This document shows, piece after piece, positions 13,259 to 36,842 of a stretch of 64,000 nucleotides of DNA (position 1 is its first letter; each line of letters starts with the position of its first letter). The stretch is from Stigmatella aurantiaca. Lineage in GTDB: Bacteria > Myxococcota > Myxococcia > Myxococcales > Myxococcaceae. Position numbers and translations under genes: made by a program. The notes under the pieces were generated by a model, which saw only the letters and a list, made by a program, of their open reading frames with translations, did no database searches and was not told the origin of the DNA. The DNA is taken from positions 62,001 to 126,000 of the forward strand of contig NZ_FOAP01000027.1 of NCBI RefSeq assembly GCF_900109545.1, read 5' to 3'.

Positions 13259-14632
13259 TCAGCCTTGCTCCGAGCGGGGGGCGGCCTCCAGGGGCGCCCC
13301 CGCCGCCAGCGCGGCGAGCTGGGCCCGCAAGGGGGCGATCAGCGCCTGCTCCGGCCCCTGGGGATAGGCATTGCAATCCCAGACCACGAGCGCGCGCAGC
13401 CGGCTCCGGAAGGTGCTGAAGATCAGCATGACCCGGGAGGGGGGGAAGAGCTGGGAGAAGTTGATGAAGTCGGCGATGGGCACGCTGCCGAAGCGCTCGA
13501 GCGGGTAGGGCACGGGCCCGGGGTTCGACATCACGATGTTCGACTTGGCGACGTAGCGCGTGATGAGCGAGGAGGAGAGCCGCAGCGGCGAGAAGCGCGA
13601 GAGGGCCGTGTAGAGCCGGACGCGGTACAGCTCCGAGAGGATCTCCCCGCTCTTCCAGTGGGTGAGCTGCTCCGCCATGGCCTGGAGCACCTCCGGGTCG
13701 GAGCCGGAGGTGGGCAGGCGCACGCTGTAGGGCACCACCAGCGTCTCGTAGAGCTCGTCCGCGTTCTCCCGCGTCATGTGGCGCAGGGAGAAGTTGTCCA
13801 GGATGCGCAGCCACCGCCGGCCCACCTGGTCCGGGGCGCTGGCCCTCCACACCTTGAACATGGCCAGGGCGAGCAGGGCGTGCACGGTGACCTTCTCCTG
13901 CTTGGCCCGCCGGCGCAGCCCCTCCAGCAGCTCGGCCCCGAAGTCCACCTTGGCGAAGTCCTGCTCGCCGCGCGGCGTGGCCGGCAGCGGCATCGACACG
14001 TCCGGGCGCAGGAAGTCCTGGATCAGGAGCTTCACCGCCCCCAGCGCATGGTGCAGCCGCTTGCGCAGCGGCAGGTGCGAGGTGAGCATCCCCGCGGTGC
14101 TGCGGTCCGTGACCTGGATGGGCGTGGCGTCGAAGGGCTGGCCCAGCTCCAGGGCGGTGTAGCTCTCGGCGACATCGTGCGCCAGCCGGTAGCCGGCCTT
14201 GGCGTCGTTGTAGAGCCGCACGGTGATGATCTGCAGGTAGCTCCGGGACGGCGTCTCCAGCAGGTGAAAGCGGACCGGGCGGCCCGCCGTCACGTCGAAG
14301 GACTCCTTCCAGACATTGGCCAGCAGCCGCGGGTGCACCGCCTCCTGCGCGTCCGTCTCGCAGCGCTCGATGCGCAGATCAATCGGGAGCGGCTCGCTCA
14401 CCAGCTCACAATCGAAGGCGCGCGCGAAGCGGCGCTTGATCCGGCTGTTCAGCACCGGGTGGCGCGCGAGCGCCTGCAGCAGGGCCGCGCGCAAGCGCTC
14501 GGGGTCGAGCCGGCCGTCCAGCTCGATCAGCTCACACGAGTTGAGGTTCCCGATCGTGATGAGCTGATAGAGGTAGAACAGGTTGTGGGCGGGCAGGGGA
14601 TAGGTCTGGGACGTGCTGTCCACCGCTGCCAT
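13259..14632 (-). CDS. Condensation-domain-like acyltransferase with altered active site
   Basis: 457 residues with the two-lobe layout of the condensation/PapA/WS-DGAT acyltransferase superfamily: N-terminal LDGRLDPERLRAALLQALARHPVL, a mid core strand, and a second lobe with TVHALLALAMFKVW and SNIVMSNPGPVPYP. Where HHxxxDG is expected there is YNDAKAG (residues 141-147), so the catalytic histidine is missing. It may be inactive, use another residue, or only bind an acyl carrier. Start 14632 is chosen because GAGGAG lies 5 to 6 bases upstream; ATG at 14662 has none. It follows the adenylating ligase by about 34 bases, one operon. Confidence 0.72.
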   Translation of the reverse strand: MAAVDSTSQTYPLPAHNLFYLYQLITIGNLNSCELIELDGRLDPERLRAALLQALARHPVLNSRIKRRFARAFDCELVSEPLPIDLRIERCETDAQEAVHPRLLANVWKESFDVTAGRPVRFHLLETPSRSYLQIITVRLYNDAKAGYRLAHDVAESYTALELGQPFDATPIQVTDRSTAGMLTSHLPLRKRLHHALGAVKLLIQDFLRPDVSMPLPATPRGEQDFAKVDFGAELLEGLRRRAKQEKVTVHALLALAMFKVWRASAPDQVGRRWLRILDNFSLRHMTRENADELYETLVVPYSVRLPTSGSDPEVLQAMAEQLTHWKSGEILSELYRVRLYTALSRFSPLRLSSSLITRYVAKSNIVMSNPGPVPYPLERFGSVPIADFINFSQLFPPSRVMLIFSTFRSRLRALVVWDCNAYPQGPEQALIAPLRAQLAALAAGAPLEAAPRSEQG

Positions 14633-14666
14633 GGGAGCTCCTCGCGATGCGGCGTGTGCCATGGGG

Positions 14667-16349
14667 TCAGGCCACGGCGGCCTGGGGGCGCTCTCCCACG
14701 AGCAGGTGGGCGAAGCGCTCGCGCACCTGGCGCTTGAGAACCTTGCCGGTCAGCCCCCGGGGAATCTGCGACTCCTCCACGAAGACGATCCGTCGCAGCG
14801 CGTCCTTGGCCTCCAGCTTCTGGTTCGCCCGCCGCAGCAGCTCGTCCGCGTCCGCGGTCATGCCAGGGTTCAGCTGGATGACGGCGCTCGGCACCGTGCT
14901 GCCATCGGCATCGGGCACGCCGATGACTACCGCCTCGCCGACCTCGGGGAGCTTGAGCAGCTGCTCCTCGATGGGGAGGGTGTAGACGGGACCCTGGCGG
15001 GTCTCCACCACGTCGACGGCCCGGTCCAGCTGGAAGAAGCGGCCGGAGCCATCGCGGTAGCCGACATCGCCCGTCCACCACCACCCGTCGATGACCACGC
15101 CATGCAGGCGGTCATGCGCGTTCCAGTACCCCTTGAACAGCATGGGGCCCTTCACCATGAACCGTCCCACCTGGCCCGGCTTGAGCTCCCGGCCCGTCTC
15201 GTCGGCGATCTTGACCTTGTGGCCGAAGATGGAGGGCCGGCCGATGCAGCGGCTGAACTGCTTCGTCCCCGAGGTGGAGATGCGCGACAGCCCGAAGAAG
15301 CCCAGCTCCGAGGTCCCCCACGCATCGACGAACACCGCGCGGATGACGGGGCGTCCGAACACGCGGAACAGGGCGCCATGCTGGGTGAAGGCGCGGATGT
15401 GGACCTCGTGGCTGGCGTCCGCGGCGGACATCCAGGCGCGCATGGAGCCGAGATCGTACTTGTCGAGCCCATGGTGGTACATCTTGAGGTACGAGTCCGG
15501 GAACCCCACGAAGACGGAGATCCGCTCCCGCTCGATGGTCCGCAGCACGCTCTCCGCATCGAACTGGCTGTGCACCCACACCGGCGCCCCGCCCACCAGC
15601 GAGGTCATCATCCCCAGGTAGGTGGCGTAGTGGTTGTAGGGCCCGATGAACAGGGCCTTGTTCTTCCGGGAGAACGGCTGCATGGCCAGGTTCGCCCGCA
15701 GCGCGCTCATGATGCCGCTGTTGCCGATGAGCACCCCCTTGGGGAAGCCCGTCGTGCCCGACGTGTGGACGATCATCACGTCCGAGTCGCTCGCCAGCTC
15801 CACCGGCTGGAGCTGATCCGAGGCCCGGGGCAGCTCCTGCGAGAGGACCACCGAGGGGACGCCCACCGTGCCCGGGGAGGTGGTGAAGAGCCACTTCTCC
15901 ACGCCCGAGCTGGGGGCCAGCTCCTGCACCCCGCCCTTGAAGGTCTCCGGATCCGTGATGACGAAGCGCGCGCCGGTGTGCGCCAGGTAGTTGCGCAGGT
16001 CCCGGTGGGGCATCCGGGGGTTGATGGGAACCGCGATCCCACCGGCCTTCACGATGGCCAGGCCGAGAAAGAAGTAGTCCGGGCTGTGCGTCTTGTAGAG
16101 GGCGACCCGGTCGAAGCGCTTGAGCCCGGCGGCCAGCAACACATTGCCCAGGCGGTTGATGAAGCCCAGCATCTCCTTGGCGCTCACGGAGCGCTCGGGC
16201 AGGCCGCTGTAGGGCAGCGGCTCCTGGAGATAGAAGACCGCGCCCGAGTGGTGCGCCGCGGAGGCCTTGTCGGCCACATTGGCCAGGGTCAGCGTTGAAT
16301 CCAGGGTGAACCGAATCCGGTTGAAGGGCCGTGTGCGAACCCAGTCCAT
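14667..16349 (-). CDS. AMP-dependent acyl-CoA/acyl-ACP synthetase
   Basis: 560 residues of the ANL adenylate-forming superfamily. Core motifs in order: VHTSGTTGFPKG (P-loop A3), WGTSELG (A5), WWWTGDVGYRDGSGRF (A7), the hinge DRAVDVVETRQG (A8) and LTGKVLKRQVRERF with the A10 lysine. It activates a carboxylic acid as acyl-AMP and passes it to CoA or a carrier. GGGGAGAGC precedes ATG at 16349. The pocket does not let me say whether the acid is fatty or aromatic. It diverges from the paaA-like gene over about 137 bases and is followed by the condensation-like gene. It could supply the thioester oxidised by the PaaABCD-like complex. Confidence 0.88.
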   Translation of the reverse strand: MDWVRTRPFNRIRFTLDSTLTLANVADKASAAHHSGAVFYLQEPLPYSGLPERSVSAKEMLGFINRLGNVLLAAGLKRFDRVALYKTHSPDYFFLGLAIVKAGGIAVPINPRMPHRDLRNYLAHTGARFVITDPETFKGGVQELAPSSGVEKWLFTTSPGTVGVPSVVLSQELPRASDQLQPVELASDSDVMIVHTSGTTGFPKGVLIGNSGIMSALRANLAMQPFSRKNKALFIGPYNHYATYLGMMTSLVGGAPVWVHSQFDAESVLRTIERERISVFVGFPDSYLKMYHHGLDKYDLGSMRAWMSAADASHEVHIRAFTQHGALFRVFGRPVIRAVFVDAWGTSELGFFGLSRISTSGTKQFSRCIGRPSIFGHKVKIADETGRELKPGQVGRFMVKGPMLFKGYWNAHDRLHGVVIDGWWWTGDVGYRDGSGRFFQLDRAVDVVETRQGPVYTLPIEEQLLKLPEVGEAVVIGVPDADGSTVPSAVIQLNPGMTADADELLRRANQKLEAKDALRRIVFVEESQIPRGLTGKVLKRQVRERFAHLLVGERPQAAVA

Positions 16350-16486: not shown

Positions 16487-17419
16487 ATGGCAGGCACCGT
16501 GAGGTCGGAGCAGGAGTTCATCGCTCACGTCCAGTCCGGAGGCGTCGTCGAGGCGGGTGATTGGATGCCGGAAGGTTACCGGCGCGCCGTCATCCGCTTC
16601 ATCGAGATGCACGCGAACTCCGAGTACATGGGGGCGCTGCTGGAGCGCGACTGGATTGCGCGCGCGCCCACGCTCGAGCGCCGGATCGCCATCACCTCCA
16701 AGGTGCAGGATGAGGTGGGCCATGCGCAGCACCTCTATTGCCTGCTGGAGGATCTCGGGCGGCCGCGCGCGGAGGTGCTGAGCGACTTGCTGGAGGGGCG
16801 CTCCCGGTACAACAGCTTCTTCCACTACCCCACGGCGTCCTGGGCGGACGTGGGCATCATCGCGTGGCTGTCCGATGCCGCGTCGATCATCGCGCAGAAG
16901 GCCCTGCTCCAGACGAGCTATGGGCCCTACCGCCGCATCCTGCCGAAGATCTGCTGGGAGGAGGCCTTCCACGTCGTGCATGGCCGGGAGATCATGCGCA
17001 CGCTGCTGTCCGGCACGCGGCAGCAGCGCGACATGGCGCAGGAGGCGCTGACGCGGTGGTGGCCGCGGCTGATCTACTTCCATGGGCCCCCCACGCCCGC
17101 GGAGAAAGACGCCGATCTCACGATCTGGAAGCTGAAGGGCCGGCCCAACGAGGACATGCGCCAGGAGTTCCTGCGGCTCTACATTCCCAAGATTCACAAG
17201 TGGGGGCTCCAGCTGCCGGATCCCCAGCTGTCCTTCGACGAGCCGTCGCAGCGCTGGCGCTACACGCAGGCGGACTGGGAGCAGGTGCGCCTCATTGGCC
17301 GGGGCCAAGGGCCCGCCAGCCAGGCGCAGCTCGAGATCCGCCGCCGCGCCATGGAGGACAACCGCTGGGTGGCGGAGACCTTGGCGCCCGTGCCCCCTGC
17401 GCAGGAGGCCTCCCGGTGA
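16487..17419 (+). CDS. PaaA-like diiron oxygenase alpha subunit
   Basis: 310-residue relative of PaaA, the catalytic subunit of phenylacetyl-CoA epoxidase. Seen: HANSEYMGALLERDWI with the first glutamate region, KVQDEVGHAQHLYCLLEDLG (E-x-x-H ligands), FFHYPTASWADVGIIAWL, TSYGPYRRILPKICWEEAFHVVHG (second E-x-x-H). These match PaaA closely in order and spacing, so a ferritin-like diiron site looks intact. Start 16487 is preferred over an upstream ATG at 16433 because GAGGTGAGA lies just before it. It overlaps the PaaB-like start by GTGA. The substrate need not be phenylacetyl-CoA in this context. Confidence 0.88.
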   Translation: MAGTVRSEQEFIAHVQSGGVVEAGDWMPEGYRRAVIRFIEMHANSEYMGALLERDWIARAPTLERRIAITSKVQDEVGHAQHLYCLLEDLGRPRAEVLSDLLEGRSRYNSFFHYPTASWADVGIIAWLSDAASIIAQKALLQTSYGPYRRILPKICWEEAFHVVHGREIMRTLLSGTRQQRDMAQEALTRWWPRLIYFHGPPTPAEKDADLTIWKLKGRPNEDMRQEFLRLYIPKIHKWGLQLPDPQLSFDEPSQRWRYTQADWEQVRLIGRGQGPASQAQLEIRRRAMEDNRWVAETLAPVPPAQEASR

Positions 17420-17748
17420 GCACGCCCCTCCACCCCACGGCGAATGGCCGTGTCCTCTATGATGTGTACGGCCGGGAGAAGCCGGGCGCGCCCGTCAAGC
17501 ACCTGGGCACGCTGGAGGCCCCGGACGCGGAGCTGGCCGGGCTCTATGCCAGCCAGCTCTTCGCCCGGCGCGGGGAGTGCCACGGCCTGCACGTCGAGGC
17601 GCGCACGCAGCAGCAGTCCGCGCCGTCCTACGAGCGGGTGCTGGAGCACCATTCCCTGCGGAACGCGTCCAGCCACTCGCCCCAGAAGCGCGCCCCCAAG
17701 CAGGAGGAGAAGCGGGACGAGGGAAAGAAGGGCCATGCGCACCTTTGA
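17416..17748 (+). CDS. PaaB-like oxygenase subunit
   Basis: 110 residues starting at GTG inside the PaaA stop (GTGA overlap). The first 65 residues match the PaaB fold: VLYDVYGREKPGAPVKHLGTLEA, then LYASQLFARRGECHGLHVEA. PaaB is a small structural subunit that organises the PaaAC complex. The last 40 residues are charged (KRAPKQEEKRDEGKKGHAH) and probably disordered. It overlaps the PaaC-like gene by 14 bases. The assignment rests on the fold pattern plus position between PaaA and PaaC. Confidence 0.82.
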   Translation: MSTPLHPTANGRVLYDVYGREKPGAPVKHLGTLEAPDAELAGLYASQLFARRGECHGLHVEARTQQQSAPSYERVLEHHSLRNASSHSPQKRAPKQEEKRDEGKKGHAHL

Positions 17749-18496
17749 GCCCCGCGTGGAGCTGCTTCTGGCGCTCGCCGACGATGAACTCCTGCTGGGC
17801 CACCGTGACTCCGAGTGGACGGGCGTCGCGCCCAATGTCGAGGAGGATGTCGCCTTCAGCTCCATCGCGCAGGACGAGGTCGGCCATGCGATGGCGCTCT
17901 ATGGGCTCGCCGGCCCGTGGTTGGGCCAGGATGTGAACGCCCTGGTGTTCTCCCGGGAGCCGCGGGACTTCCGCCACGCGCGCCTGCTCGAGGCGCCCCG
18001 GGGGGACTTCGCGTTCACCATCGTCCGCCGCTTCGTCTACGAGCTGGCGGACCGGCTGCGCATCGAGGCGCTGGGCGCGTCGGCGCTGGTGCCGCTCGCG
18101 GAGCTCGCGCGGAAGATCCGCCGCGAGGAAGTGCTCCACTTCGACCATGCCTGGCTGTGGCTGCGCCGGCTGTCGGCGAGGGAGCCGGGCCGCGCCCGCA
18201 TCGAACAGGCGCTCCAGGCGGTGCTCCCCGCGGCCGCGGGGCTGCTGGTGGCCCTGCCCTCGGAGGAGCCGCTGCTCTCGGAGGGGGTGCTGCCCGGCTC
18301 GTGGGAGCCGCTCTGGGCCACGTGGCGGGAGCAACTGCTGCAGCACCTGGGGCACATCGGCTTCGCCCACCTCGCCGAGGGGCTGGCCTATACCCGCGCG
18401 GCGCTCGACCGCTATGCCGTCCCGTCGCCCACGTTCCTGGCCATCCACCGGGACGTCACCGAGGTGAGCCGGCTGGCTCCGGGAGGCCACTGGTGA
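17735..18496 (+). CDS. PaaC-like oxygenase structural subunit
   Basis: 253 residues, ferritin-like. It contains LLALADDELLLGHRDSEWTGVAPNVEEDVAF, SSIAQDEVGHAMALYGL, and RKIRREEVLHFDHAWLWLRRL, the characteristic PaaC order. In known complexes PaaC is the catalytically inactive partner of PaaA; here E-x-x-H pairs are still visible (DEVGH, EEVLHFDH). The ATG at 17735 lies inside the end of the PaaB-like gene, with AAAGAAGG upstream, showing tight coupling. The 3' end overlaps the PaaD-like start (GTGA). Confidence 0.85.
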   Translation: MRTFEPRVELLLALADDELLLGHRDSEWTGVAPNVEEDVAFSSIAQDEVGHAMALYGLAGPWLGQDVNALVFSREPRDFRHARLLEAPRGDFAFTIVRRFVYELADRLRIEALGASALVPLAELARKIRREEVLHFDHAWLWLRRLSAREPGRARIEQALQAVLPAAAGLLVALPSEEPLLSEGVLPGSWEPLWATWREQLLQHLGHIGFAHLAEGLAYTRAALDRYAVPSPTFLAIHRDVTEVSRLAPGGHW

Positions 18497-18999
18497 GCCC
18501 GCCCGAGGGGGGGGCCTCGGCGGTGTGGACCGCGCTCGATGGCGTGAATGATCCGGAGCTGCCGGTCATCTCCATCGTGCAGCTGGGCATGGTCCGGGAC
18601 GTGCGCGTCGACGGCGCGCGGTGCACCGTCGTGTTCTCGCCCACCTTTCTGGGCTGCCCCGCGAGCCGGCTCATCTCCCGGGAGATCGAACAGGCTGTGC
18701 GGGGGCTCGGCCTCGAGCCGGATGTCCAGGTGTCGCACGCCAAGCCCTGGAGCCCCGGGCAGATCAGCGCCCAGGGGCGCGAGGCGCTGCGCGCGGTGCA
18801 CATCAGCATTGGCCACGGCGCCGTCACGGAGGAGGGCGCCCTGGGGGGGCTCGAGTCGCTGGAGAAGGACCGCGTGCCCTGCACCCGCTGTGGCAGCGAG
18901 GACACGGTCCTGATCAGCGCGTTTGGCTCCACCCGGTGCCGTGCCGTCCGCAGGTGCAAGCCTTGCCAGGGTCTTTTCGAGCAGCTCAAGCCCCTGTAA
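18493..18999 (+). CDS. PaaD-like iron-sulfur/maturation protein
   Basis: 168 residues. An N-terminal MIP18/DUF59 domain (VNDPELPVISIVQLGMVRDVRV and TFLGCPASRLI) is followed by a C-terminal zinc-ribbon-like part with CTRCGSEDT and CKPCQGLF. This two-part layout is that of PaaD, thought to help mature the complex or its Fe-S partner. GTG start overlaps the PaaC-like stop. No PaaE-type reductase gene follows; the next gene is an MmpL exporter 34 bases on, so electrons must come from a reductase encoded elsewhere. Confidence 0.85.
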   Translation: MSPPEGGASAVWTALDGVNDPELPVISIVQLGMVRDVRVDGARCTVVFSPTFLGCPASRLISREIEQAVRGLGLEPDVQVSHAKPWSPGQISAQGREALRAVHISIGHGAVTEEGALGGLESLEKDRVPCTRCGSEDTVLISAFGSTRCRAVRRCKPCQGLFEQLKPL

Positions 19000-19032: not shown

Positions 19033-21471
19033 GTGATTTCACGGCTCCTCGATCAATTCTTCGCCTGGTACGCGGATGTGTTCCTGCGCCGGCGCTACGT
19101 GTTCCTCGCGGCCATGCTCGTGGGGGTGGCCACCCTGGCGGCGTTCGTCCCGAAGCTGCGCTTCGACAACTCGCCCGAGTCGTTCTTCCTCCGGGAAGAC
19201 AAGACGCTGGAGCGCTACCAGCATTTCCAGGCGCTGTTCGGCACGGATGAGTACGCGCTCATCGTCTTCGAGCGGAAGGAGCCCTGGACCCAGGAGTTCA
19301 TCGAGCAGCTCCGGACGCTCACGGACCGGCTCGCCAAGGTGCCCGATGTGCTCGAGGCCACCTCCATCGCCAACGTGCGCCACGTGGTGGGCGAGGACGA
19401 CCAGCTCATCGTCGAGGACTTCATCCCCCTGGAGATGAAGGAGCCGGCGGAGCTGGAGGCCCGGCGCAAGGCCGCGCAGGAGCACCCCTACTACCGGGAC
19501 ATGTTCGTGAGCGCGGATGGCACCTCGCTGGGCCTCGTGCTCAAGACGCAGATCCACGCGGGGGAGATCGACTACAAGATCGAGATGACCAAGCGCTTCC
19601 GGGCCCTCCTGGCCGAGGAGCCCTACCGGGCCTGGGGGGCCCGCGTGGTGGGCAGCCCCGTGCTGGACGCGGACGTCCGGGAGATCATGTCCCGGGAGAG
19701 TGGCACCTTCTGTGTGCTCGTCCTGCTCCTGATGAGCGCGGTGTTCTACATCGTCTTCCGCAGCTGGCTGGCGGTGGTGCTGCCCATCACGGTGGCGCTG
19801 CTCTCGGTGGTCTGCGCCCTGGGGTTGATGGGGCTCACCGGGATGCCCTTCACGCTCGTCTCGGCGATCATCCCGTCCTTCCTCATCTCCACCGGCGTGG
19901 GGCCGAGCATCTTCCTGCTCTCGGCGTTCTTCAACACCGTCAACGAGGGGCGCTCCCCGCGCGAGGCCGTGGCCGAGGCGCTGCGGCACTCGGCCTCCTC
20001 GAGCGTGCTGTCGATGGTGACCACGGCGGCGGGCCTGTTCGCCTTCTCCGTCTCGAAGATCCGCCCCATCGAGGAGCTGGGCCGCACGATGGGGACCGCG
20101 CTCGGCATCTCCTTCTGCATCACGCTCATCCTCGTCCCCTTCGTGCTGGCGGGGCGCAAGCACATCGCCGCCTCCGCGAAGCGCAAGGACATGCTGGAGG
20201 GGCGGGTGCAGGGGCTGCGCACCTGGGCCGAGATGGTGATGCGCCACCGGCGCAAAATCATCGTCATCTTCAGCCTGTTCGTCGCCACGGCGCTCTCCGG
20301 CGCGCTCCGGCTCCGCTCGGACTACCACTACCTGGGCGTCTTCAAGACCTCCACCCCGCTGCGGCAGGACTACGACTACGTCGAGCGGGCGATGAAGGCG
20401 AGCACGTCGATCGAGGTGCTCATCGACACGGGCAAGCCCGATGGCGTGAAGAACCCGGCCCTGCTCCAGGCCATGCTCGGCCTGGAGCGCACCGTGGCCG
20501 AGCGCTTCGCCAGCATGGGCGCCAAGCCCTACAGCGTGGCGGACCTGACCAGTGAAATTAACCAGGCGCTGAGCAACGGCAATCCCGAGGCCTACACCAT
20601 CCCGGCCACGGCCAACGCGGTGGCCGAGAACCTGCTCCTGTACCAGCTCTCGGGCGACGACGAGCTCACCAGCCTCGTCAGCTCCGACTTCCGCTACGCG
20701 CGCATCCGCATCGCGGTGGCGAACCGGCCGGACCAGGAGAACCAGGCGGTCTTCGCCGTCATCCAGGAGTACACCGGCAAGCACCTGGGCGCGGCCGTGG
20801 GCAGCCCCAAGGTGGAGGTGACGGGGCTCATCCACCTGTGGGCCGCCATCGACAGCTACCTGGCCCAGACGGAGCTCGAGGCGCTGCTCATCACGGTGCT
20901 GGCCGTGGCCCTGGTGATGATCGCCGTCTTCCGCTCGGTGCTGCTGGGGCTGCTGGTGGCCGCGCTCAACGCCTCGGCGGTGCTGGGCACGCTGGGGCTC
21001 ATGGGCTACCTGGGCATCTGGCTCGACCCCTACACCATCCTCATCGCCAGCTTCGCCCTGGGCATCCTGGACGATGACTCCATCCACATCGTGCGCGACA
21101 TCCAGCGCCAGTACGCGCAGACCGGGGACTTGCGGGTGGCCATCGTGAACGCCAGCTCCTCGGCGGGACAGGGCATCTTCTATCTGTCGGCGGCGCTGGC
21201 GTGCGGCTTCGCCACCTATGCCTTCTCCACGGTGGCGAGCCTGAGCAAGTTCGGGCTGCTCATCGCCTTCACCGTGGTGCTCGGCGCGGTGACGGAGTTC
21301 ATCTTCGCGCCCGCGGTGCTCAAGGCCGTGGGCGAGCCGCTGTTCCGCCGCTCCCGGCTCCCGGCGCATGCGCCGCCCGGGGCGGCCCTGGCCGAGGTGA
21401 AGTCCGTGCCCGGCCTGAGCGGCACGCACGAGGACACGTCGTCGGATTTCCGGAAGGAGGCCAGCAAGTGA
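19033..21471 (+). CDS. MmpL/RND-superfamily lipid exporter
   Basis: 812 residues, two homologous halves each with one membrane helix, a periplasmic porter loop and about five more helices. The first half has DNSPESFFLREDKTLERYQHF after the first helix and the sterol-sensing-like stretch VVLPITVALLSVVCALGLMGL; the second has YTILIASFALGILDDDSIHIVRD with the acidic D-D-D typical of proton-driven members. These transporters usually export lipids or hydrophobic metabolites. GTG start with AGGAG upstream. The TGA overlaps the start of the next gene by one base. The tail after residue 780 is cytoplasmic and charged. Confidence 0.9.
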   Translation: MISRLLDQFFAWYADVFLRRRYVFLAAMLVGVATLAAFVPKLRFDNSPESFFLREDKTLERYQHFQALFGTDEYALIVFERKEPWTQEFIEQLRTLTDRLAKVPDVLEATSIANVRHVVGEDDQLIVEDFIPLEMKEPAELEARRKAAQEHPYYRDMFVSADGTSLGLVLKTQIHAGEIDYKIEMTKRFRALLAEEPYRAWGARVVGSPVLDADVREIMSRESGTFCVLVLLLMSAVFYIVFRSWLAVVLPITVALLSVVCALGLMGLTGMPFTLVSAIIPSFLISTGVGPSIFLLSAFFNTVNEGRSPREAVAEALRHSASSSVLSMVTTAAGLFAFSVSKIRPIEELGRTMGTALGISFCITLILVPFVLAGRKHIAASAKRKDMLEGRVQGLRTWAEMVMRHRRKIIVIFSLFVATALSGALRLRSDYHYLGVFKTSTPLRQDYDYVERAMKASTSIEVLIDTGKPDGVKNPALLQAMLGLERTVAERFASMGAKPYSVADLTSEINQALSNGNPEAYTIPATANAVAENLLLYQLSGDDELTSLVSSDFRYARIRIAVANRPDQENQAVFAVIQEYTGKHLGAAVGSPKVEVTGLIHLWAAIDSYLAQTELEALLITVLAVALVMIAVFRSVLLGLLVAALNASAVLGTLGLMGYLGIWLDPYTILIASFALGILDDDSIHIVRDIQRQYAQTGDLRVAIVNASSSAGQGIFYLSAALACGFATYAFSTVASLSKFGLLIAFTVVLGAVTEFIFAPAVLKAVGEPLFRRSRLPAHAPPGAALAEVKSVPGLSGTHEDTSSDFRKEASK

Positions 21472-22277
21472 TGAGCGGATACGGCATGAAGTTCGGGCTT
21501 CTCCCCTTCGCCCTGATGGGGGCCGCGGTGCTCTTGGGGCCCACGCGGGCCCACGCGGACGACATCACCGGCAGCGGCGCCGCCGTCCTGACGCAGATCG
21601 CCGCGTCGGACAGCTGGGGCTTCGCCGATGCGGAGCTCAAGGCCCAGGCGCTCATCCGCGAGAAGGATGGGAAGAGCCGCACGGTGCGCTTCTCGGCGCA
21701 GTCGCGCTACTACGAGGGGACGCTGACCAAGAGCCTGGTGCGCTTCCTGGCGCCGCCGGACCTCAACGGCGTCAAGTTCCTGCAGGTCCAGAAGCGGGAC
21801 ACGGATGACGAGCGCTACATCTACCTGCCCGAGCTCAAGCGGGTCCGGCGCGTCTCCGGCAAGCTGCGCGCCGGCTCGTTCATGACCACCGACTTCGCGT
21901 TCGCCGACCTGGACCGGCGCGAGCTCCGGTTCGCGGAGGCCACCGCCCTGCCCGATGAAAAGGTGGGGGACACCGTGTGCAACCGCTTGACCGTGAAGCC
22001 CACCTCCAGCGACGCGCAGTACTCGCGGCTCGAGGTGTGGGCGCGCAAGGACAACCACATGATCCTCAAGTCCCAGATGTACGATCTCAAGGGCGCTCAC
22101 GCCAAGACGTTCACCGTCGAGGAGAGCAAGCAGATCCAGGGGCGGTGGTTCGTCACCCGCTCCCGCATGGAGAACCACTCGGGGCAGCGGGCCACGACGC
22201 TCGTGCTCGAGCAGATCGTCCCGCGCAAGGACTTCCCGGACAACCTCTTCGACTCCCGCCGGCTGGAGCAGGAGTAG
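21471..22277 (+). CDS. LolA-like outer membrane lipoprotein-sorting family protein
   Basis: 268 residues, signal peptide MKFGLLPFALMGAAVLLGP with cleavage after AHAD. The mature part has the LolA/LppX half-barrel features: KTVRFSAQ-type strands, SLVRFLAPPDLNGVKFLQVQ, YIYLPELKRVRRVSG, SFMTTDFAFADLDR and RLEVWARKDNHMILKSQMYD. This subgroup typically sits next to MmpL transporters and is thought to carry a lipid across the periplasm. ATG at 21471 overlaps the MmpL stop; AAGGAGG lies 10 bases upstream. An ATG at 21486 would give a shorter signal. Confidence 0.88.
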   Translation: MSGYGMKFGLLPFALMGAAVLLGPTRAHADDITGSGAAVLTQIAASDSWGFADAELKAQALIREKDGKSRTVRFSAQSRYYEGTLTKSLVRFLAPPDLNGVKFLQVQKRDTDDERYIYLPELKRVRRVSGKLRAGSFMTTDFAFADLDRRELRFAEATALPDEKVGDTVCNRLTVKPTSSDAQYSRLEVWARKDNHMILKSQMYDLKGAHAKTFTVEESKQIQGRWFVTRSRMENHSGQRATTLVLEQIVPRKDFPDNLFDSRRLEQE

Positions 22278-22281
22278 TCCC

Positions 22282-23862
22282 ATGGGGTGGAAGCAGGTGC
22301 GAGGCGGTGGGCTGGTGGCCCTCCTGATGCTGGCCCCCGGGAGCGTGGGGGCCGCGCAGCAGGAGGAGGCGCCGCTGGCGGGGGACGCGGAGTCCCCTGC
22401 CCCCGCCGCGGAAGAGGCGTCTTCCCCCGCGGACGCGTCCGGGGGCCTGGACACGTCCGGGGACTCCTTCGGCGAGGCCTCGCTGGAGGGCTTCGCCAGC
22501 GAGAGCCAGGCCTCCACCGAGCTGCTCGGCTGGGCCCGGCTCTCGCCCACCTATGACTTCCCCCGGAGCGGGCCCACCGGTGAGCCGCCCGAGCTGCGCA
22601 CCCCGCACGACCGGCTGACGGAGCGCTCGACGCTCTATCTGCGCTTCCACCACCGGCGCGGCGATGGGTGGTCCTTCGCGGCCTCGGGCGCGCTCGATCA
22701 CCGCGTGCGCTGGCGCAAGCAGACGCCGCCCGCCGGGCAGGAGGCAGGAGACTCCTGGCGCACGCAGCTCGAGCCGCGGCTGCAGGAGCTCTACCTTGGC
22801 CTGTCCGGGGCCTCGCTGAGCGTGACCCTCGGACAGCAGCGGATCGCCTGGGGCCGCAACGAAGTCCTGGCCATCAATGATGTCGTCAACCCGCAGGACC
22901 TGCGCGACCCGCTGCTGGTCCCGGAGGAGCTCCGGTACAAGCCGGTCATCGCCGCGCGGGTGGACCTCTCGCTGGGCTCGAGCTCGCTCCAGCTCATCGC
23001 CGTGCCCTTCTTCCAGCCGGCCAGCTTCGACTTCTACGGGAGCAACTGGGCGCTGGTGCAGGACGCCGCGCCCGCCGCGTACCGCGCCGTCCTGGGCCAG
23101 CTGGGAGACTCGTCCCAGGGCAGCGCCCTGTTCTCCCCGGAGCGCGGCGTGAGCGCGGGGCTCACCCAGGCGGCCGCGGGGCTCCGCTTCTCCTGGCGGC
23201 TGGGCGGCGTGGAGATCAACCACTATTACCACCTGGGCTTCGACTCCACGCCCCGCTGGCGGGTGGATGAGGCGCAGCTCGCGGCCTTGTTGGATCCGGC
23301 GCTTCAGGAGGATCCGGCCGCCCGGGCGCTGGCCTTCAACCGCTTCGCCGAGACGGTCTCCGTCAGCTACCAGCGCCGCCACCACGTGGGCTTCTCCGCG
23401 GTGGGCGAGGCGGGGCCCTTCATCCTCTACGGCGAGGGGGCCTATGACTCGCGCAAGGTGTTCATCACCCAGGCGCTCTCCACGGCCGTCCACCCCTTCC
23501 TCACCGCCCTGGCCGGCATCGAGTACCAGCGCGACTTTGATCAGGTGGTGGACTTCGCCCTGTCCTACGGGCGGATCCTCCCCCGCGAGGGGCAGCCTCC
23601 CCCGCTGCTCTGGAACGAGCGCGACAGCCTGGGCTCGGCGCTCACCGTGCGCTGGGGGCTGACGGAGGAGTTCTCGCTGGAGGGCCAGGGTGGGGTGGGA
23701 TTCATCCCCCTGGGGGTGAGTGGACGGCTCGGAGTGCGCTGGAAGCGCGAGCACCTCTCCTGCACCGTGGGCGCGCTCCTCCTGGCCGGCGAGACGTTCT
23801 CCTACGGCGGCTACTACCGCGCGAACCAGGGGCTCTACGCGGATCTGCGCTACGTGTTCTGA
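22282..23862 (+). CDS. Outer-membrane beta-barrel protein, DUF1302-like
   Basis: 526 residues. Signal peptide ends near GSVGAAQ; a low-complexity Ala/Glu/Pro-rich segment to about residue 75 follows. After that come alternating amphipathic strands to the C-terminus, which ends in DLRYVF with an aromatic last residue as in outer-membrane barrels. LSVTLGQQRIAWGRNEVLAIN plus DVVNPQDLRDPLL resemble the G-R-Q-x-x-x-W-G and N-P-x-D elements of DUF1302 proteins. It starts 4 bases after the LolA-like gene. Together with MmpL it suggests an inner membrane to outer membrane export route. Confidence 0.75.
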   Translation: MGWKQVRGGGLVALLMLAPGSVGAAQQEEAPLAGDAESPAPAAEEASSPADASGGLDTSGDSFGEASLEGFASESQASTELLGWARLSPTYDFPRSGPTGEPPELRTPHDRLTERSTLYLRFHHRRGDGWSFAASGALDHRVRWRKQTPPAGQEAGDSWRTQLEPRLQELYLGLSGASLSVTLGQQRIAWGRNEVLAINDVVNPQDLRDPLLVPEELRYKPVIAARVDLSLGSSSLQLIAVPFFQPASFDFYGSNWALVQDAAPAAYRAVLGQLGDSSQGSALFSPERGVSAGLTQAAAGLRFSWRLGGVEINHYYHLGFDSTPRWRVDEAQLAALLDPALQEDPAARALAFNRFAETVSVSYQRRHHVGFSAVGEAGPFILYGEGAYDSRKVFITQALSTAVHPFLTALAGIEYQRDFDQVVDFALSYGRILPREGQPPPLLWNERDSLGSALTVRWGLTEEFSLEGQGGVGFIPLGVSGRLGVRWKREHLSCTVGALLLAGETFSYGGYYRANQGLYADLRYVF

Positions 23863-24012: not shown

Positions 24013-25713
24013 GTGAACACCATCGTCGAAGCGATGCGCCAAAGCGCCGAGCGCGATCCACGCCGTCCGCAGTTCACGTGGTTGATGGATGGCGAGCAGG
24101 AGGGAGGCACGCTGGACACGGCCGGCCTGGACCGGCTGGCGCGTGCAGGGGCCGCGGCGCTGCAAGAGGCGGGCGCCACCGGTGAGCGGGTGGTGTTGCT
24201 GATCCGCCCCGGGCTCGAGTTCATCGCGGGCTTTCTGGCCTGTCTCTACGCGGGGGCGCTGCCCGTGCCCGCCGTGGTGCCCCGCCGCGCGGCCGAGTTC
24301 GAGCGCCTGTTCGGCATCTCCAGCCGGGTGACGGCGCGCTTCGCGCTGGCCGATGGGGATCTGATCAAAACGCTGCCAGAGCCCCTGCGCCAGGCCAGCG
24401 GGATGAGCTGGCTGGCCATCGAGCAGGTCCTCGCGGCGGATGCGGAGCTCTGGCGGCCCTTCTCGCCGAAGCCCAGCGACCTGGCCTTCCTCCAGTTCAC
24501 CTCGGGCTCGACGGGCAATCCCCGGGGCGTCATGGTGAGCCACGGCAACCTCGTCCACAACAGCGAGTCCATCGTCTGGGTGCGCCGTGAGGATCCCTGC
24601 CGCGTGGTGGGCTGGTTGCCGCCCTACCATGACATGGGCCTCATCGGCTGCATCATCCACCCCATCCTCTCGCAGGTGCCGTCGGTGCTGATGTCGCCCC
24701 ACCACTTCCTGCAGCGCCCCGCGCGCTGGCTGGAGGCGGTCACCCGCTACCGGGGGACCATCAGCCCCGCCCCCGACTTCGCGCTGCGCCTGTGCGCCGA
24801 CCGCATCAGCGACGAGGATCGCGACCGGCTCGATCTGTCCAGCTGGAACATCCTCATCTGCGGCGCCGAGCCCGTGCGTCCCTCGACGTGGCAGGCCTTC
24901 GCGCCCCGCTTCGTGCCCGTGGGGCTGGACCCGAACATCCTCTCGCCCTGCTATGGCCTGGCCGAGTCCACGCTCATCACCACGGGGCGGCGCACGGATG
25001 CGCCGCTGGTGTTCCGCTCGGTGGATGCCACCGCGCTGGAGGAGGGCCGGGTGGAGCCCGGCGGGGAGCGGACGCGGATGCTGTTCGCCTGCGGCCGGCC
25101 TGTTCCGGGGCAGCAGGTGGTCATCGTGGACGAGCAGCTGCGGCCCCTGCCCGATGCGATGGTGGGGGAAATCCTCATCGCGGGTCCCAGCGCCACGCAT
25201 GGCTACTACGGCGACGAGCAGGCCACCCGGGAGACGTTCAAGGCCGAGGTGCAGGGCCATGAGGGGACCTTCATCCGCACCGGCGACCTCGGCTTCATGG
25301 ATGACGGCTCGCTGTACATCGTCGGGCGCATCAAGGACATCGTGAAGATCCGGGGCAAGACGCTGCACGCCCAGGACATCGAGGACGCGGCGTCCGCGGC
25401 CCACGCCGCGCTGAGCGCGGGCGCCCTCGCGGCCTTCTCCGTGGAGGAGGAGGGCGAGGAGCGGCTCGTCATCGTGGCGGAGCTCAAGCGCACCTCCCGC
25501 AACAGCCCGCCCGAGCCCATCGTGAACGCGGTCTGTGCCGCCGTGACGCGCGCCCATGGGGTGGTCCCCTTCGAGGTGTGCCTGCTGCGGCCGGGCGGGG
25601 TTCCCAGGACCTCGAGCGGCAAGGTGCGCCGCCGCGAATGCCGGCGCCAGTGGATGGAGCGCAGGCTCAATCCGTTCGCCGCCGAGGAAGAGCTGTCTCA
25701 GGCAGCACCATGA
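24013..25713 (+). CDS. Fatty acyl-AMP ligase (FAAL-type)
   Basis: 566 residues, ANL superfamily, FAAL subtype. Motifs: LAFLQFTSGSTGNPRGVMVSHGNL, the FAAL hallmark WLPPYHDMGLIG, CYGLAEST, FIRTGDLGFMDDG, GRIKDIVKIRGK followed by QDIE, and RTSSGKVRRREC with the last lysine. FAALs make acyl-AMP from free fatty acids and load an acyl carrier protein rather than CoA; the ACP encoded two genes on is the obvious partner. GTG start at 24013. The 3' end overlaps the dehydrogenase start (ATGA). Chain length cannot be read from sequence. Confidence 0.9.
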   Translation: MNTIVEAMRQSAERDPRRPQFTWLMDGEQEGGTLDTAGLDRLARAGAAALQEAGATGERVVLLIRPGLEFIAGFLACLYAGALPVPAVVPRRAAEFERLFGISSRVTARFALADGDLIKTLPEPLRQASGMSWLAIEQVLAADAELWRPFSPKPSDLAFLQFTSGSTGNPRGVMVSHGNLVHNSESIVWVRREDPCRVVGWLPPYHDMGLIGCIIHPILSQVPSVLMSPHHFLQRPARWLEAVTRYRGTISPAPDFALRLCADRISDEDRDRLDLSSWNILICGAEPVRPSTWQAFAPRFVPVGLDPNILSPCYGLAESTLITTGRRTDAPLVFRSVDATALEEGRVEPGGERTRMLFACGRPVPGQQVVIVDEQLRPLPDAMVGEILIAGPSATHGYYGDEQATRETFKAEVQGHEGTFIRTGDLGFMDDGSLYIVGRIKDIVKIRGKTLHAQDIEDAASAAHAALSAGALAAFSVEEEGEERLVIVAELKRTSRNSPPEPIVNAVCAAVTRAHGVVPFEVCLLRPGGVPRTSSGKVRRRECRRQWMERRLNPFAAEEELSQAAP

Positions 25714-27311
25714 ACGGCCTCTACGCGGCAACGCTCGCCCAGCTGGAGCAGCGGCTGGGGCCCGTTTCGGGCCAGGGCCCTCTCGGCCAGGACGCCACGC
25801 TCGCGCGGGATGAGGGCGAGGCCTTCCCCGCGGAGGCCCTGACGGCCCTGCGCGCGCACGGCGTGCCGGACCTGCTCGTGCCCGCCTCGGAAGGGGGGCA
25901 GTTCGTCTCCTTCGAGGGGGCGCTCGCGGTGGGGCTCACCCTGGCGCGGAGGGATCCGTCCGTGGCGTTGAGCCAGGGGATGCTGTGCTGGCTCTGGCTC
26001 GCCTGGATGGTGGGAAGCCCCGGCCAGCGGGAGCGGGCCCGGGCCCTCCTGCAGGGCACCGCCGCGCCGTGCTTCGCCGCCTCCGAGGCCAACCACGGCG
26101 CGGATCTGCTGGCCACCGAGACGCTGGCCCTGTCCAGGCCGGAGGGCTGGGAGGTGACGGGCGAGAAGTGGCCGATTGGCCGGGCCAGCCACGCCGCGTT
26201 CGCCTTCGTGCTGGCGCGCACCCGTCCAGCGCCCGGGCCGCGCGCGTTGAGCTGGTTCCTGGTGGAGCTGGATCAACCCTCGGTGACCCGGCTGCCCAAG
26301 GTCCGCACGGTGGGGCTGCGCGCCTCGGACCTGAGCGGCCTGCGGTTTGCCCGCGCGGCGGCGAGCCCCGTGGGCGAGGAGGGGCAGGGGCTGGAGCTGA
26401 CCCTCAAGATCTTCCAGCTCACCCGCCCGCTCATGGCGGGGCTGGGCCTGGGCACGGGCGACAGGGCCCTGCGGGTGGCCACCCGGTTCGCCCTGGAGCG
26501 CGAGCTCTACCGGGCGAGCGCCGCGAGCCTGCCCTCCGTGCGCCGGCTGCTCGTGGGGGCGTGGCTGCGCCTCCTGGCCGCGGAGATCCTCCTCCTGTCC
26601 GGGGTGCGCGCGCTGCATGGGGCCCCCGGCCAGGCGAGCCTCTCGTCGCCCTTGGCCAAGGCCATCGCGCCCGCGCTGGTGGAGCAGGCGATCCGGTCCG
26701 CCACGACGGTGCTGGGCGCCCGCGCCTTCATGCGGGAAGGCCCCGCAGCGATCTTCCAGAAGATGGCGCGGGACCATGCGGCCGTGGGGCTCATCGATGG
26801 CAGCGAGCCCGTCTGCCTGCATGCCCTGGCCGCGGAGCTGCCCCAGGTGTTCACGGCCAACGCGGGAAGCGGCACCCTGCTGCGCTCGCGCTTCAGCCTG
26901 GAGGAGCCGGTGCCGGCGTTTGCCCCGGCGTCGCTCGGCCTGACCGCCCGCGGCGTGGATGACGTCACCGCGGAGCTTCCCCCCGGGCTGCTCCCCCACT
27001 GGAGCGCGCTGCGGCAGGGCGGGAGCGAGGCGTTGCGCGGGCCGGCGCGGCTGGAGACCGCGCGGCGGTATGGGCTGTTGCACGCGGCGGCCTGCTGCTT
27101 CCACTTCGAGCGCTTCAATCCCGGCCTGGCGCTGTGCCGCGCGGGCGTGCCCGCCCTGGCGGGCCAGTTCCTGATGGATCCCGAGGCCTTGCCTGAGACG
27201 GCGTGCCGGGAGATTTTCGACCTGCTGGCCGCGCGTGTCGAGGGCGGACACCTGCTCTCGGTGACGGATGTGTCCGCCGGGCCAGCCTCGGAGACAGCCC
27301 TCGCAGGATGA
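25710..27311 (+). CDS. Acyl-CoA dehydrogenase-like flavoprotein
   Basis: 533 residues, larger than the usual 380 to 400 by a C-terminal helical extension. The N-terminal helical domain, FAASEANHGADLLAT substrate/FAD loop, EKWPIGRASHA (like the K-x-x-I-x-N-A element), and the C-terminal four-helix part with MREGPAAIFQKMARDHAAVGLIDGSE are typical of the family. Where YEGT with the catalytic Glu is expected there is IDGS (D363), so the base may be Asp or lie elsewhere. In this module the likely substrate is an acyl-ACP, giving an unsaturated acyl chain as in tambjamine-type pathways. ATGA overlaps on both sides. Confidence 0.82.
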   Translation: MNGLYAATLAQLEQRLGPVSGQGPLGQDATLARDEGEAFPAEALTALRAHGVPDLLVPASEGGQFVSFEGALAVGLTLARRDPSVALSQGMLCWLWLAWMVGSPGQRERARALLQGTAAPCFAASEANHGADLLATETLALSRPEGWEVTGEKWPIGRASHAAFAFVLARTRPAPGPRALSWFLVELDQPSVTRLPKVRTVGLRASDLSGLRFARAAASPVGEEGQGLELTLKIFQLTRPLMAGLGLGTGDRALRVATRFALERELYRASAASLPSVRRLLVGAWLRLLAAEILLLSGVRALHGAPGQASLSSPLAKAIAPALVEQAIRSATTVLGARAFMREGPAAIFQKMARDHAAVGLIDGSEPVCLHALAAELPQVFTANAGSGTLLRSRFSLEEPVPAFAPASLGLTARGVDDVTAELPPGLLPHWSALRQGGSEALRGPARLETARRYGLLHAAACCFHFERFNPGLALCRAGVPALAGQFLMDPEALPETACREIFDLLAARVEGGHLLSVTDVSAGPASETALAG

Positions 27312-27640
27312 GAGACATGATAACCAGCGACGAACTCGAACAATGGCTGAAGGCCATGGTGGCCACCCGGACGCGTCTGAGCCCCGACGCCATCGACGTC
27401 AACCTGCCGCTCGATGAGCTGGGGATCGACTCCATGGAAGCGGTGGCCCTGGCCGGAGAGCTGGAGACCCTGCTCAAGCGCCGCGTGGAGCCGACCGTGC
27501 TGTGGGACTACCGCACCCTCCGGGCGCTGTCGCGTGCCCTGACGGGGGAGCAGCAGGCCCCTCCCCCCAGCGCCACCGATGGCATGTCGGATGCCGAAGT
27601 GGAAGCCCTCCTCCGCAAGATGACGGGAACCAAGTCATGA
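27308..27640 (+). CDS. Acyl carrier protein
   Basis: 110 residues. The phosphopantetheine site is LGIDSMEAVALAGELE, with the serine in the D-S-M triad; this is the usual PKS/stand-alone ACP form. Helix 1 is DELEQWLKAMVA. After residue 85 there is a Pro/Ser linker and a short helix MSDAEVEALLRKM that resembles C-terminal docking helices of PKS modules. Start 27308 is chosen for the ATGA overlap with the dehydrogenase; ATG 27317 is possible. It overlaps the synthase start by ATGA. It needs a phosphopantetheinyl transferase, not present in this window. Confidence 0.9.
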   Translation: MRDMITSDELEQWLKAMVATRTRLSPDAIDVNLPLDELGIDSMEAVALAGELETLLKRRVEPTVLWDYRTLRALSRALTGEQQAPPPSATDGMSDAEVEALLRKMTGTKS

Positions 27641-36830: not shown

Positions 36831-36842
36831 GGCGCGGGCCCG

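What the first reader, a model, noticed from the sequence alone, without database searches (positions are those of the whole stretch)
19033..23862. Three-component MmpL + LolA-like + outer-membrane barrel route for the product
The three genes are almost contiguous (1-base overlap, then 4 bases) and sit between the oxygenase and acyl-module genes. Inner-membrane pump, periplasmic half-barrel lipid carrier and barrel are each predicted, giving a complete envelope path. This argues for a membrane or surface lipid product rather than a soluble one.
Basis: partly seen in the sequence, partly recalled or inferred. Interest (0 to 1): 0.65.

Follow-up and report, generated by a model that had tools for sequence, protein, structure and literature searches.

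The report
Pump-carrier-barrel exporter in myxobacterial gene cluster
Three neighbouring genes in a myxobacterium encode an inner-membrane pump, a fat-carrying shuttle and an outer-membrane channel that most likely carry a home-made oily compound outwards; such sets are already known, but this one travels with the same two biosynthesis genes in unrelated bacteria, and close relatives seem to run a similar set with a different kind of pump.

Summary
In detail: at 19033-23862 (+) lie an MMPL/RND pump, a LolA_like periplasmic protein and a DUF1302 porin-like barrel, almost touching. Predicted folds agree for the last two. The parts list is not new: AmeABCD, TOL_3187/3188 and ApeLMN are published relatives. 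Of 80 related pump loci, 36 have all three genes, in four gene orders, and 25 have neither partner. Seen from LolA, the barrel is the constant neighbour (41 of 42 loci) and the pump varies: MmpL 9, FtsX-type ABC 8, neither 25.

New here: this pump falls in a fully supported group of four (window, neighbour genome G079, a Lysobacterales MAG, Leisingera plasmids) that all have carrier, barrel and the same AMP-ligase/condensation-like pair. In two same-genus genomes the orthologous ligase, with a more distant condensation-like gene, sits beside an FtsX-ABC/LolA set instead (barrel there weak). Best reading: dedicated exporter of the cluster's hydrophobic product, RND and ABC engines being interchangeable. 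"Surface lipid rather than soluble product" is plausible, not shown.

The parts
19033..21471 (+). MMPL-family RND (HAE3-like) inner-membrane transporter, 812 aa; Asp pair D681-D682 invariant in the alignment
   Evidence: PF03176 127 bits; TIGR00921 220 bits, under its 352-bit cut-off; D681/D682/H685 invariant in all 14 aligned sequences, window included
21471..22277 (+). LolA_like periplasmic carrier, 268 aa (or 263 aa from 21486), hydrophobic N-terminal segment of signal-peptide type
   Evidence: PF17131 167 bits; model pLDDT 81.4; Foldseek 3BK5, 9TP6, 4Z48, 3BUU; N-terminus
22282..23862 (+). DUF1302-type outer-membrane beta-barrel, 526 aa: hydrophobic N-terminal segment, about 50 residues of low-confidence acidic/Pro/Ala stretch, then a porin-like barrel ending in F
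   Evidence: PF06980 32.4 bits; model pLDDT 66.7, Z 18.9 to OccK7 and about 16-17 to AlgE
14667..16349 (-). AMP-forming acid ligase, 560 aa; orthologues travel with the export genes in other lineages
   Evidence: PF00501 183 bits; 39-42% identity to the L163 and Leisingera ligases; one group at 100/100 in two trees
13259..14623 (-). condensation/PapA-like protein without an HHxxxDG motif, 454 aa
   Evidence: PF00668 28.4 bits, under its 30.6 cut-off; no motif; 28-32% identity to the L163 and Leisingera proteins
16499..17419 (+). PaaA-like diiron oxygenase subunit (context)
   Evidence: TIGR02156 341 bits, over cut-off
17464..17748 (+). PaaB-like subunit (context)
   Evidence: PF06243 29.3 bits, cut-off 27; no NCBIfam match at 1e-5
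17735..18496 (+). PaaC-like subunit (context)
   Evidence: TIGR02158 164 bits, over cut-off
18493..18999 (+). PaaD-like maturation factor; ends 33 bases before the pump start
   Evidence: TIGR02159 133 bits, over cut-off
24013..25713 (+). fatty acyl-AMP ligase (FAAL) (context)
   Evidence: PF00501 203 bits; FAAL-type NCBIfam models, below their cut-offs
25710..27311 (+). acyl-CoA dehydrogenase-like protein (context)
   Evidence: PF02770, PF00441
27308..27640 (+). acyl carrier protein, GIDSM motif (context)
   Evidence: PF00550 54.6 bits; motif
27637..29907 (+). alpha-oxoamine synthase with a SnoaL-like domain (context)
   Evidence: PF00155, PF12680; best PDB match serine palmitoyltransferase 8GUH/3A2B, E 8e-77

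Best explanation
The three genes encode a dedicated export line for the hydrophobic product of this biosynthetic cluster. The proton-driven MmpL/RND pump lifts the molecule out of the inner membrane (family knowledge), the LolA_like protein takes the hydrophobic part in its half-barrel groove and carries it across the periplasm (inferred from the predicted fold), and the DUF1302 barrel receives it at the outer membrane and inserts or releases it (inferred). The carrier-barrel pair is a reusable module that bacteria combine with either an RND or an FtsX-type ABC pump. The conserved biosynthetic partners of this pump group are the AMP ligase and condensation-like protein at 13259-16349, so their acyl or aryl conjugate, here probably joined to an aminoketone lipid from the FAAL-ACAD-ACP-AOS module, is the likeliest cargo. 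Shown here: gene content, predicted folds of carrier and barrel, recurrent linkage, pump and ligase groupings. Inferred: cargo, direction, final location.
For: All three proteins pass the Pfam cut-offs; predicted LolA and porin folds. Of 80 pump-centred loci 36 have both partners, 14 LolA only, 5 barrel only, 25 neither; of 56 with at least 2.5 kb on both sides of the pump 27 have all three, in orders L-B-M 16, L-M-B 4, M-L-B 4 and divergent B'L'M 3. MmpL-LolA fusions next to a barrel in three same-genus genomes, L046-L048. Window, G079, L163 and Leisingera pumps group together at 100% SH-aLRT; each of the four has LolA, barrel, ligase and condensation-like gene within about 16 kb. All five Leisingera plasmids have pump, LolA and barrel and ligase and condensation-like gene. 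Ligase group 100/100, kept when long rows were left out and a mixture model used. Of 72,556 plasmids the ligase (E 1e-60) and the condensation-like protein (1e-10) hit the same 5 Leisingera records, the pump (1e-40) those 5 plus one Halioglobus plasmid not looked at further. In G077 and G078 the orthologous ligase and a distant condensation-like gene lie beside FtsX permease, FtsX-LolA_like fusion and ATPase. L078/L079: trio plus FAAL, ACAD, ACP-AOS-SnoaL with a 24%-identical pump.
Against: No chemistry, expression or localisation data. 25 of 80 related pumps have neither partner nearby, and 33 of 42 LolA-centred loci have no MmpL. Most trios elsewhere are not visibly in biosynthetic clusters: AMP-binding genes lie within 4.5 kb of the pump at 10 of 80 loci, and 7 of those 10 lack LolA and barrel. 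The 80 loci are the best of 506 confirmed relatives, drawn with 14 pumps that already had at least a barrel neighbour, and the LolA and barrel profiles were trained partly on the loci counted. In the ABC variants the barrel is weak (17.8 bits in L248; not reached in L247) and the condensation-like protein distant (21-22% identity, E about 1e-12). Leisingera and Lysobacterales members lack the FAAL/AOS module in the stretches read, so the FAAL-AOS lipid may not be the cargo. 150 bases separate the trio from the FAAL gene, so the two may be transcribed apart. The five Leisingera plasmids are alike and count as one lineage; the L163 condensation-like gene is cut by the contig end.
Confidence: 0.72

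Rival explanations
1. Self-protection efflux like AmeABCD: the trio removes a toxic, membrane-partitioning product or intermediate to the outside, with no directed delivery to the outer membrane.
For: Same three protein superfamilies as AmeA (DUF1302), AmeB (DUF1329, LolA superfamily) and AmeD (HAE3); deletion of ameABCD lowers monoterpene tolerance (passages of PMC6394551). The group members carry aromatic rather than lipid genes in the stretches read.
Against: No AmeC-type gene (COG4447/BNR) was recognised among the genes scanned between PaaA and AOS. A LolA carrier and fusions of it to the pump fit hand-over of a bulky hydrophobic cargo better than efflux of small solutes, but do not exclude it.
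Confidence: 0.2
2. A private lipoprotein-sorting (Lol-like) line that delivers a lipoprotein or assembles the barrel, unrelated to the small-molecule product.
For: The carrier belongs to the LolA superfamily; ABC/FtsX partners, as in LolCDE, occur at 8 of 42 loci; a LolCDE-like ABC, LolA-like and Omp85 cluster is described in Borrelia (passages of PMC13078400).
Against: P. gingivalis LolA3, a solved relative, binds that organism's LolB only very weakly and lacks the LolA arginine and LolB leucine (passages of PMC13103446); no LolB-like gene recognised among the genes scanned; the pump group tracks biosynthetic enzymes across three lineages.
Confidence: 0.08
3. Uptake route: the barrel and carrier import a hydrophobic substrate that the Paa-like oxygenase and ligases degrade.
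For: PaaABCD-like subunits and acid ligases resemble catabolic genes; TOL_3187 (MMPL-LolA) rose and TOL_3188 appeared on n-C28 alkane (passages of PMC6304351).
Against: ACP, FAAL, AOS and condensation-like protein are biosynthetic types; characterised MmpL and HpnN proteins export (family knowledge); Leisingera clusters carry genes that make aminobenzoate-type precursors (pabB, aminotransferase IV).
Confidence: 0.06

Closest known systems
AmeABCD of Castellaniella defragrans (PMC6394551; passages seen)
   Same: DUF1302 outer-membrane protein, LolA-superfamily periplasmic protein and HAE3-type RND pump in one cassette
   Different: AmeB is DUF1329 (451 aa), whereas the window protein is LolA_like (268 aa) with only a 50-residue DUF1329 match; Ame has a fourth, COG4447 protein; Ame is tied to monoterpene tolerance, this set to a biosynthetic cluster
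TOL_3187/TOL_3188 of Thalassolituus oleivorans (PMC6304351; passages seen)
   Same: MMPL plus LolA-like domain beside a predicted porin; a fused form of this kind occurs in same-genus genomes (L046-L048)
   Different: unfused in the window; TOL_3188 is reported without conserved domains; the TOL genes were seen in proteomics on long-chain alkane and no transport test appears in the passages seen
ApeL/ApeM/ApeN of the E. coli aryl polyene cluster (PMC8253772; passages seen)
   Same: RND transporter plus LolA-like protein inside a lipid-type biosynthetic cluster, proposed to take the product to the outer membrane
   Different: ApeN is LolB-like (DUF3261) and the gene table passage seen lists no barrel; here a DUF1302 barrel takes that place
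Borrelia BBJ23-29 (PMC13078400; passages seen)
   Same: LolA-like carrier plus outer-membrane barrel driven by an inner-membrane engine, like the ABC variants in L011/L012 and G077/G078
   Different: ABC engine and Omp85 barrel; the seven genes described include no biosynthetic enzyme
HpnN hopanoid RND transporter
   Same: MMPL/HAE3-like pump for a lipid
   Different: 75 bits against a 752-bit cut-off; reported to act without periplasmic or outer-membrane partners (passage)

Membership tests
MMPL family (PF03176) | Pfam gathering score | tested here: met
   127 bits against 20.5
HAE3 subfamily model TIGR00921 | curated score cut-off 351.9 | tested here: not met
   219.8 bits; best NCBIfam model but below cut-off, so called HAE3-like
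LolA_like family (PF17131) | gathering score and LolA half-barrel fold | tested here: met
   167 bits; model matches 3BK5 and 9TP6 with TM-score 0.74-0.77 by query length
DUF1302 family (PF06980) | gathering score and beta-barrel fold | tested here: met
   32.4 against 23.2 bits, residues 166-401 only; porin-like model of moderate confidence
AmeABCD-type cassette | DUF1302 + DUF1329/LolA + HAE3-like RND encoded together | tested here: met
   the DUF1329 match covers only 50 residues and the HAE3 model is below its cut-off
AmeABCD-type cassette | second periplasmic protein of COG4447 type (AmeC) | tested here: not met
   no such gene recognised among the genes scanned between 16499 and 29907, so not filed as AmeABCD
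ApeLMN-type lipid transport | LolB-like DUF3261 partner | tested here: not met
   none recognised among the genes scanned; a DUF1302 barrel instead
HpnN hopanoid transporter | HpnN score cut-off | tested here: not met
   75 against 752 bits
Tripartite HAE1 efflux (AcrAB-TolC type) | membrane-fusion protein and OEP-family channel with the pump | tested here: not met
   none beside this pump; a separate AcrB-type set with HlyD and OEP proteins lies at 33732-39298
Lol lipoprotein sorting | carries lipoproteins to the outer membrane | not testable with these tools
   needs biochemistry

The most novel reading that the evidence does not exclude
Gram-negative bacteria use a general small-molecule counterpart of the Lol system: a LolA_like carrier plus DUF1302-type barrel forms a standard periplasm-to-surface line into which either a proton-driven MmpL pump or an ATP-driven FtsX-type pump is plugged. 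One pump group is dedicated to clusters defined by an AMP ligase/degenerate condensation-protein pair, and relatives of that pair kept the line while the engine was exchanged.
Probability: 0.4. Interest if true: 0.75.

Novelty: new variant of a known kind. Interest (0 to 1): 0.5.

Why it matters
How hydrophobic natural products and unusual lipids cross the Gram-negative periplasm and reach the surface is poorly known outside LPS, lipoprotein and Mla transport (general knowledge). A compact carrier-barrel line that works with two unrelated engines and is linked to specific enzymes would give a testable genetic system, and a marker (LolA_like plus DUF1302) for finding clusters with envelope-directed products.

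Tried and rejected
Scan of genome contigs with the acyl-CoA dehydrogenase alone found no relative. Literature searches for the trio inside biosynthetic clusters turned up, among what I followed, the aryl polyene case, AmeABCD, the Thalassolituus pair and LolA3; this covers the held open library only, and long listings were not read through. First paper search for FAAL plus AOS in myxobacteria: nothing. A search for the ligase at E 1e-80 in 369 genomes of the class of the L163 genome found only that genome; in 195 genomes of the window's phylum only 4 have it.

My first LolA profile mixed in pump sequence from fusion proteins; it was rebuilt on domain envelopes and the counts given come from the rebuilt one. 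PaaC was first taken as 17444-18496; its N-terminal 97 residues overlap PaaB in another frame and the start was moved to 17735. The AcrB-type set at 33732-39298 was considered as the exporter and set aside: other strand, separate genes. L049 was first thought an MmpL-LolA fusion, but its 810-residue N-terminal part has no Pfam match, and one search places it in the rhomboid group. The first ligase tree warned of long branches meeting, also at the G077/G078 rows; it was rebuilt without two long outside rows and with a mixture model, and the six-row group stayed at 100/100. The pump tree used the quick method, midpoint root for drawing. The barrel match rows listed were porin-like; absence of other folds there is no evidence.

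Rows dropped: of the matches listed only 40 regions were fetched, mostly the best scores, some good ones skipped; two own-genome loci were added, giving 42. The window itself is not among them; L046 and L179 are the same place and occur in the two surveys. Loci of about 3.5 kb (L015-L044 and the like) were left out as too short. One search uses 13 regions: 8 as control, 5 Leisingera.
Full report
Observation. The junctions read TGATG (one shared base) and TAG-TCCC-ATG (four bases); a second ATG at 21486 could also be the carrier's start. Pfam cut-offs are passed by all three: MMPL 127 bits, LolA_like 167 bits, DUF1302 32.4 bits. The DUF1302 match covers only part, so the barrel was modelled: with 21 relatives the model (pLDDT 66.7) is a porin-like barrel, Z 18.9 to OccK7 and about 16-17 to the alginate exporter AlgE; Foldseek ranks OmpF-type porins first, E about 5e-11. 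The carrier model (pLDDT 81.4) has the LolA half-barrel and matches 3BK5, 9TP6 (P. gingivalis LolA3), 4Z48 (DUF1329 family) and 3BUU. The pump keeps D681-D682...H685, invariant in all 14 aligned sequences; that this Asp pair serves proton relay is recalled family knowledge.

Setting. Upstream on the same strand are PaaA, PaaB, PaaC and PaaD-like genes; PaaD ends 33 bases before the pump. Downstream, after 150 bases, come FAAL, acyl-CoA dehydrogenase, ACP and an alpha-oxoamine synthase with a SnoaL-like part, closest in the PDB to serine palmitoyltransferase. On the opposite strand upstream are an AMP ligase and a condensation-like protein without HHxxxDG. A neighbour genome, G079, has the same genes; the four compared this way are 96-98% identical. 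The organism belongs to the genus group of Hyalangium versicolor: same-genus genome G082 has a contig of 448,868 bases, the length of NZ_JAHXBF010000009.1.

Is the trio a unit? From the pump side, 80 loci, the best of 506 confirmed relatives, were drawn from genome contigs with a pump alignment. 36 have LolA and barrel, 14 LolA only, 5 barrel only, 25 neither. Of the 56 with at least 2.5 kb on both sides of the pump, 27 have all three, 10 LolA only, 2 barrel only and 17 neither; orders L-B-M 16, L-M-B 4, M-L-B 4, divergent B'L'M 3. The sample is biased: the 14 alignment members already had at least a barrel neighbour, and the profiles were trained partly on these loci. In 8 regions (146.7 kb) not chosen for LolA or barrel, neither profile matched. 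From the carrier side, 77 of 145 genomes of the order have a match. In 42 loci read (40 of those matches plus two own-genome loci), a barrel lies within 5 kb in 41; the engine is MmpL in 9, FtsX plus ATPase in 8, and neither in 25, of which 19 have a rhomboid-TPR gene. So the constant pair is carrier plus barrel and the engine varies. In this genome the other two LolA_like genes sit with FtsX-type ABC genes and a barrel. In three same-genus genomes pump and carrier are one protein beside a barrel (L046-L048). Against a general biosynthetic role: AMP-binding genes lie within 4.5 kb of the pump at only 10 of 80 loci, 7 of these without LolA or barrel; other recurrent neighbours (TetR regulator, short-chain dehydrogenase, histidine kinase and housekeeping genes) give no common theme.

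Which product? The closest pump relative in genome contigs, L163 from a Lysobacterales MAG (39% identity), lies in another kind of cluster: BoxB-like epoxidase (473 bits, below the 499 cut-off), carrier, an aminotransferase-III/AMP-ligase protein, pump, PabB/TrpE-like protein, barrel, then a ligase 39% identical to the window ligase and a condensation-like gene (cut by the contig end) 32% identical to the window's. A protein search of 72,556 plasmids found the window ligase in 5 records, all Leisingera. All five carry an MMPL transporter, an "outer membrane lipoprotein-sorting protein" and a hypothetical protein that the barrel profile recognises (39-95 bits on the genes as I called them, 85 on the whole annotated protein of L. 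thetidis). In four the ligase is followed directly by the condensation-like gene; in the fifth the record ends there and tblastn finds it at the start of the circular record. In NJS201 the aminotransferase-III and PabB genes are annotated in pieces. The pump hits these five plus one Halioglobus plasmid, not followed. The pumps of window, G079, L163 and Leisingera group at 100% SH-aLRT among 89 rows (quick method). Their ligases and those of G077 and G078 group at 100/100 among 20 rows; the tool warned of long branches, and the group held at 100/100 with 18 rows and a mixture model. In 195 genomes of the phylum the ligase (E 1e-80) occurs in 4, all in this genus.

Engine exchange. In G077 and G078 (same genus) the ligase (40-41% identity) and a condensation-like gene (21-22% identity, E about 1e-12, so distant) lie beside an FtsX permease, an FtsX-LolA_like fusion (in L248 PF02687 50.6 and PF17131 98 bits; in L247 seen by profile only), an ATPase and a 391-402 aa protein that only weakly resembles the barrel (17.8 bits in L248, not reached in L247). 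So the ligase has an RND line in some genomes and an ABC line in others. L248 also holds DHQS-II and DeoC-type aldolase genes; from recall, such a pair makes 3-amino-4-hydroxybenzoate. Leisingera has PabB, aminotransferase IV and a 4-hydroxybenzoate 3-monooxygenase homologue. Aromatic acids are therefore likely partners of the ligase; in the window no aminobenzoate genes were recognised near it, and PaaABCD may act on an aryl-CoA (inference).

A second link, outside that group: L078 and L079 (same family) combine a 24%-identical pump, carrier and barrel with FAAL, acyl-CoA dehydrogenase and an ACP-AOS-SnoaL protein. The AOS is 58% identical over 372 residues, but AOS domains at the end of type I PKS proteins are nearly as close (54-56%), so this supports an association of such lines with AOS-type lipids without proving a common pathway. 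Polyketide-derived sphingolipids made with an AOS are known from Pseudomonas (passages of PMC12134224).

Mechanism. Most likely: pump extracts the product from the inner membrane, carrier shields and ferries it, barrel delivers it. Only gene content, predicted folds and linkage are shown. Direction rests on the biosynthetic setting and on characterised MmpL/HpnN proteins. Final place (outer leaflet, vesicle or medium) is open, so "surface lipid rather than soluble product" stays a plausible guess.

Known or new. The kind of system is known in outline: AmeABCD, TOL_3187/3188 and ApeLMN (passages), and an ABC/LolA/Omp85 analogue in Borrelia. What I did not find with the searches made in the held library is the carrier-barrel pair as a module shared by RND and ABC engines, or the ligase/condensation-linked pump group. 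Hence "new variant of a known kind".

Noticed in passing
L049-L076 (for example L052:9925-13524): In genomes of this order a LolA_like plus barrel pair is conserved beside a rhomboid-TPR protein and mostly a divergent FHA protein, with no MmpL or FtsX pump recognised within 5 kb: rhomboid-TPR at 19 of 42 LolA-centred loci, with a barrel in 18 of these. Function unknown.
   Followed up: partly
L144-L149 (for example L145:9598-18919): The best AOS relatives outside the window type are domains of long proteins (1,861-2,492 aa in these six loci); the two scanned (L145, L146) are type I PKS ending in AOS. A FAAL-type ligase lies nearby in 4 of 6, and a CMAS-type methyltransferase in the two where that gene was scanned (L146, L148). 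49 of 195 genomes of the phylum have an AOS match at E 1e-100 or better, window included. They look like PKS-made sphingoid lipids.
   Followed up: partly
L253-L257: A cluster on five Leisingera plasmids with pabB, 4-hydroxybenzoate 3-monooxygenase homologue, ligase and trio; in the four records read far enough aminotransferase IV, an acyl-homoserine-lactone synthase and a LuxR regulator follow. No paper on it turned up in the one search made for it.
   Followed up: partly
L248:1601-15378 and L247: Same-genus cluster with DHQS-II, DeoC-type aldolase, two AMP ligases, reductase and an FtsX-LolA_like fusion protein.
   Followed up: partly
window 10272-13100 (-): 942-aa protein with no Pfam match beside the condensation-like gene; in G079 a 410-aa gene on the other relative strand lies there instead.
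   Followed up: no
window 33732-39298 (-): A separate AcrB-type pump with HlyD adaptor and OEP channel genes, about 4 kb downstream of the cluster.
   Followed up: no
L049:6798-9776: LolA_like domain fused to an 810-residue N-terminal part with no Pfam match, next to a barrel and near rhomboid and FHA genes.
   Followed up: no
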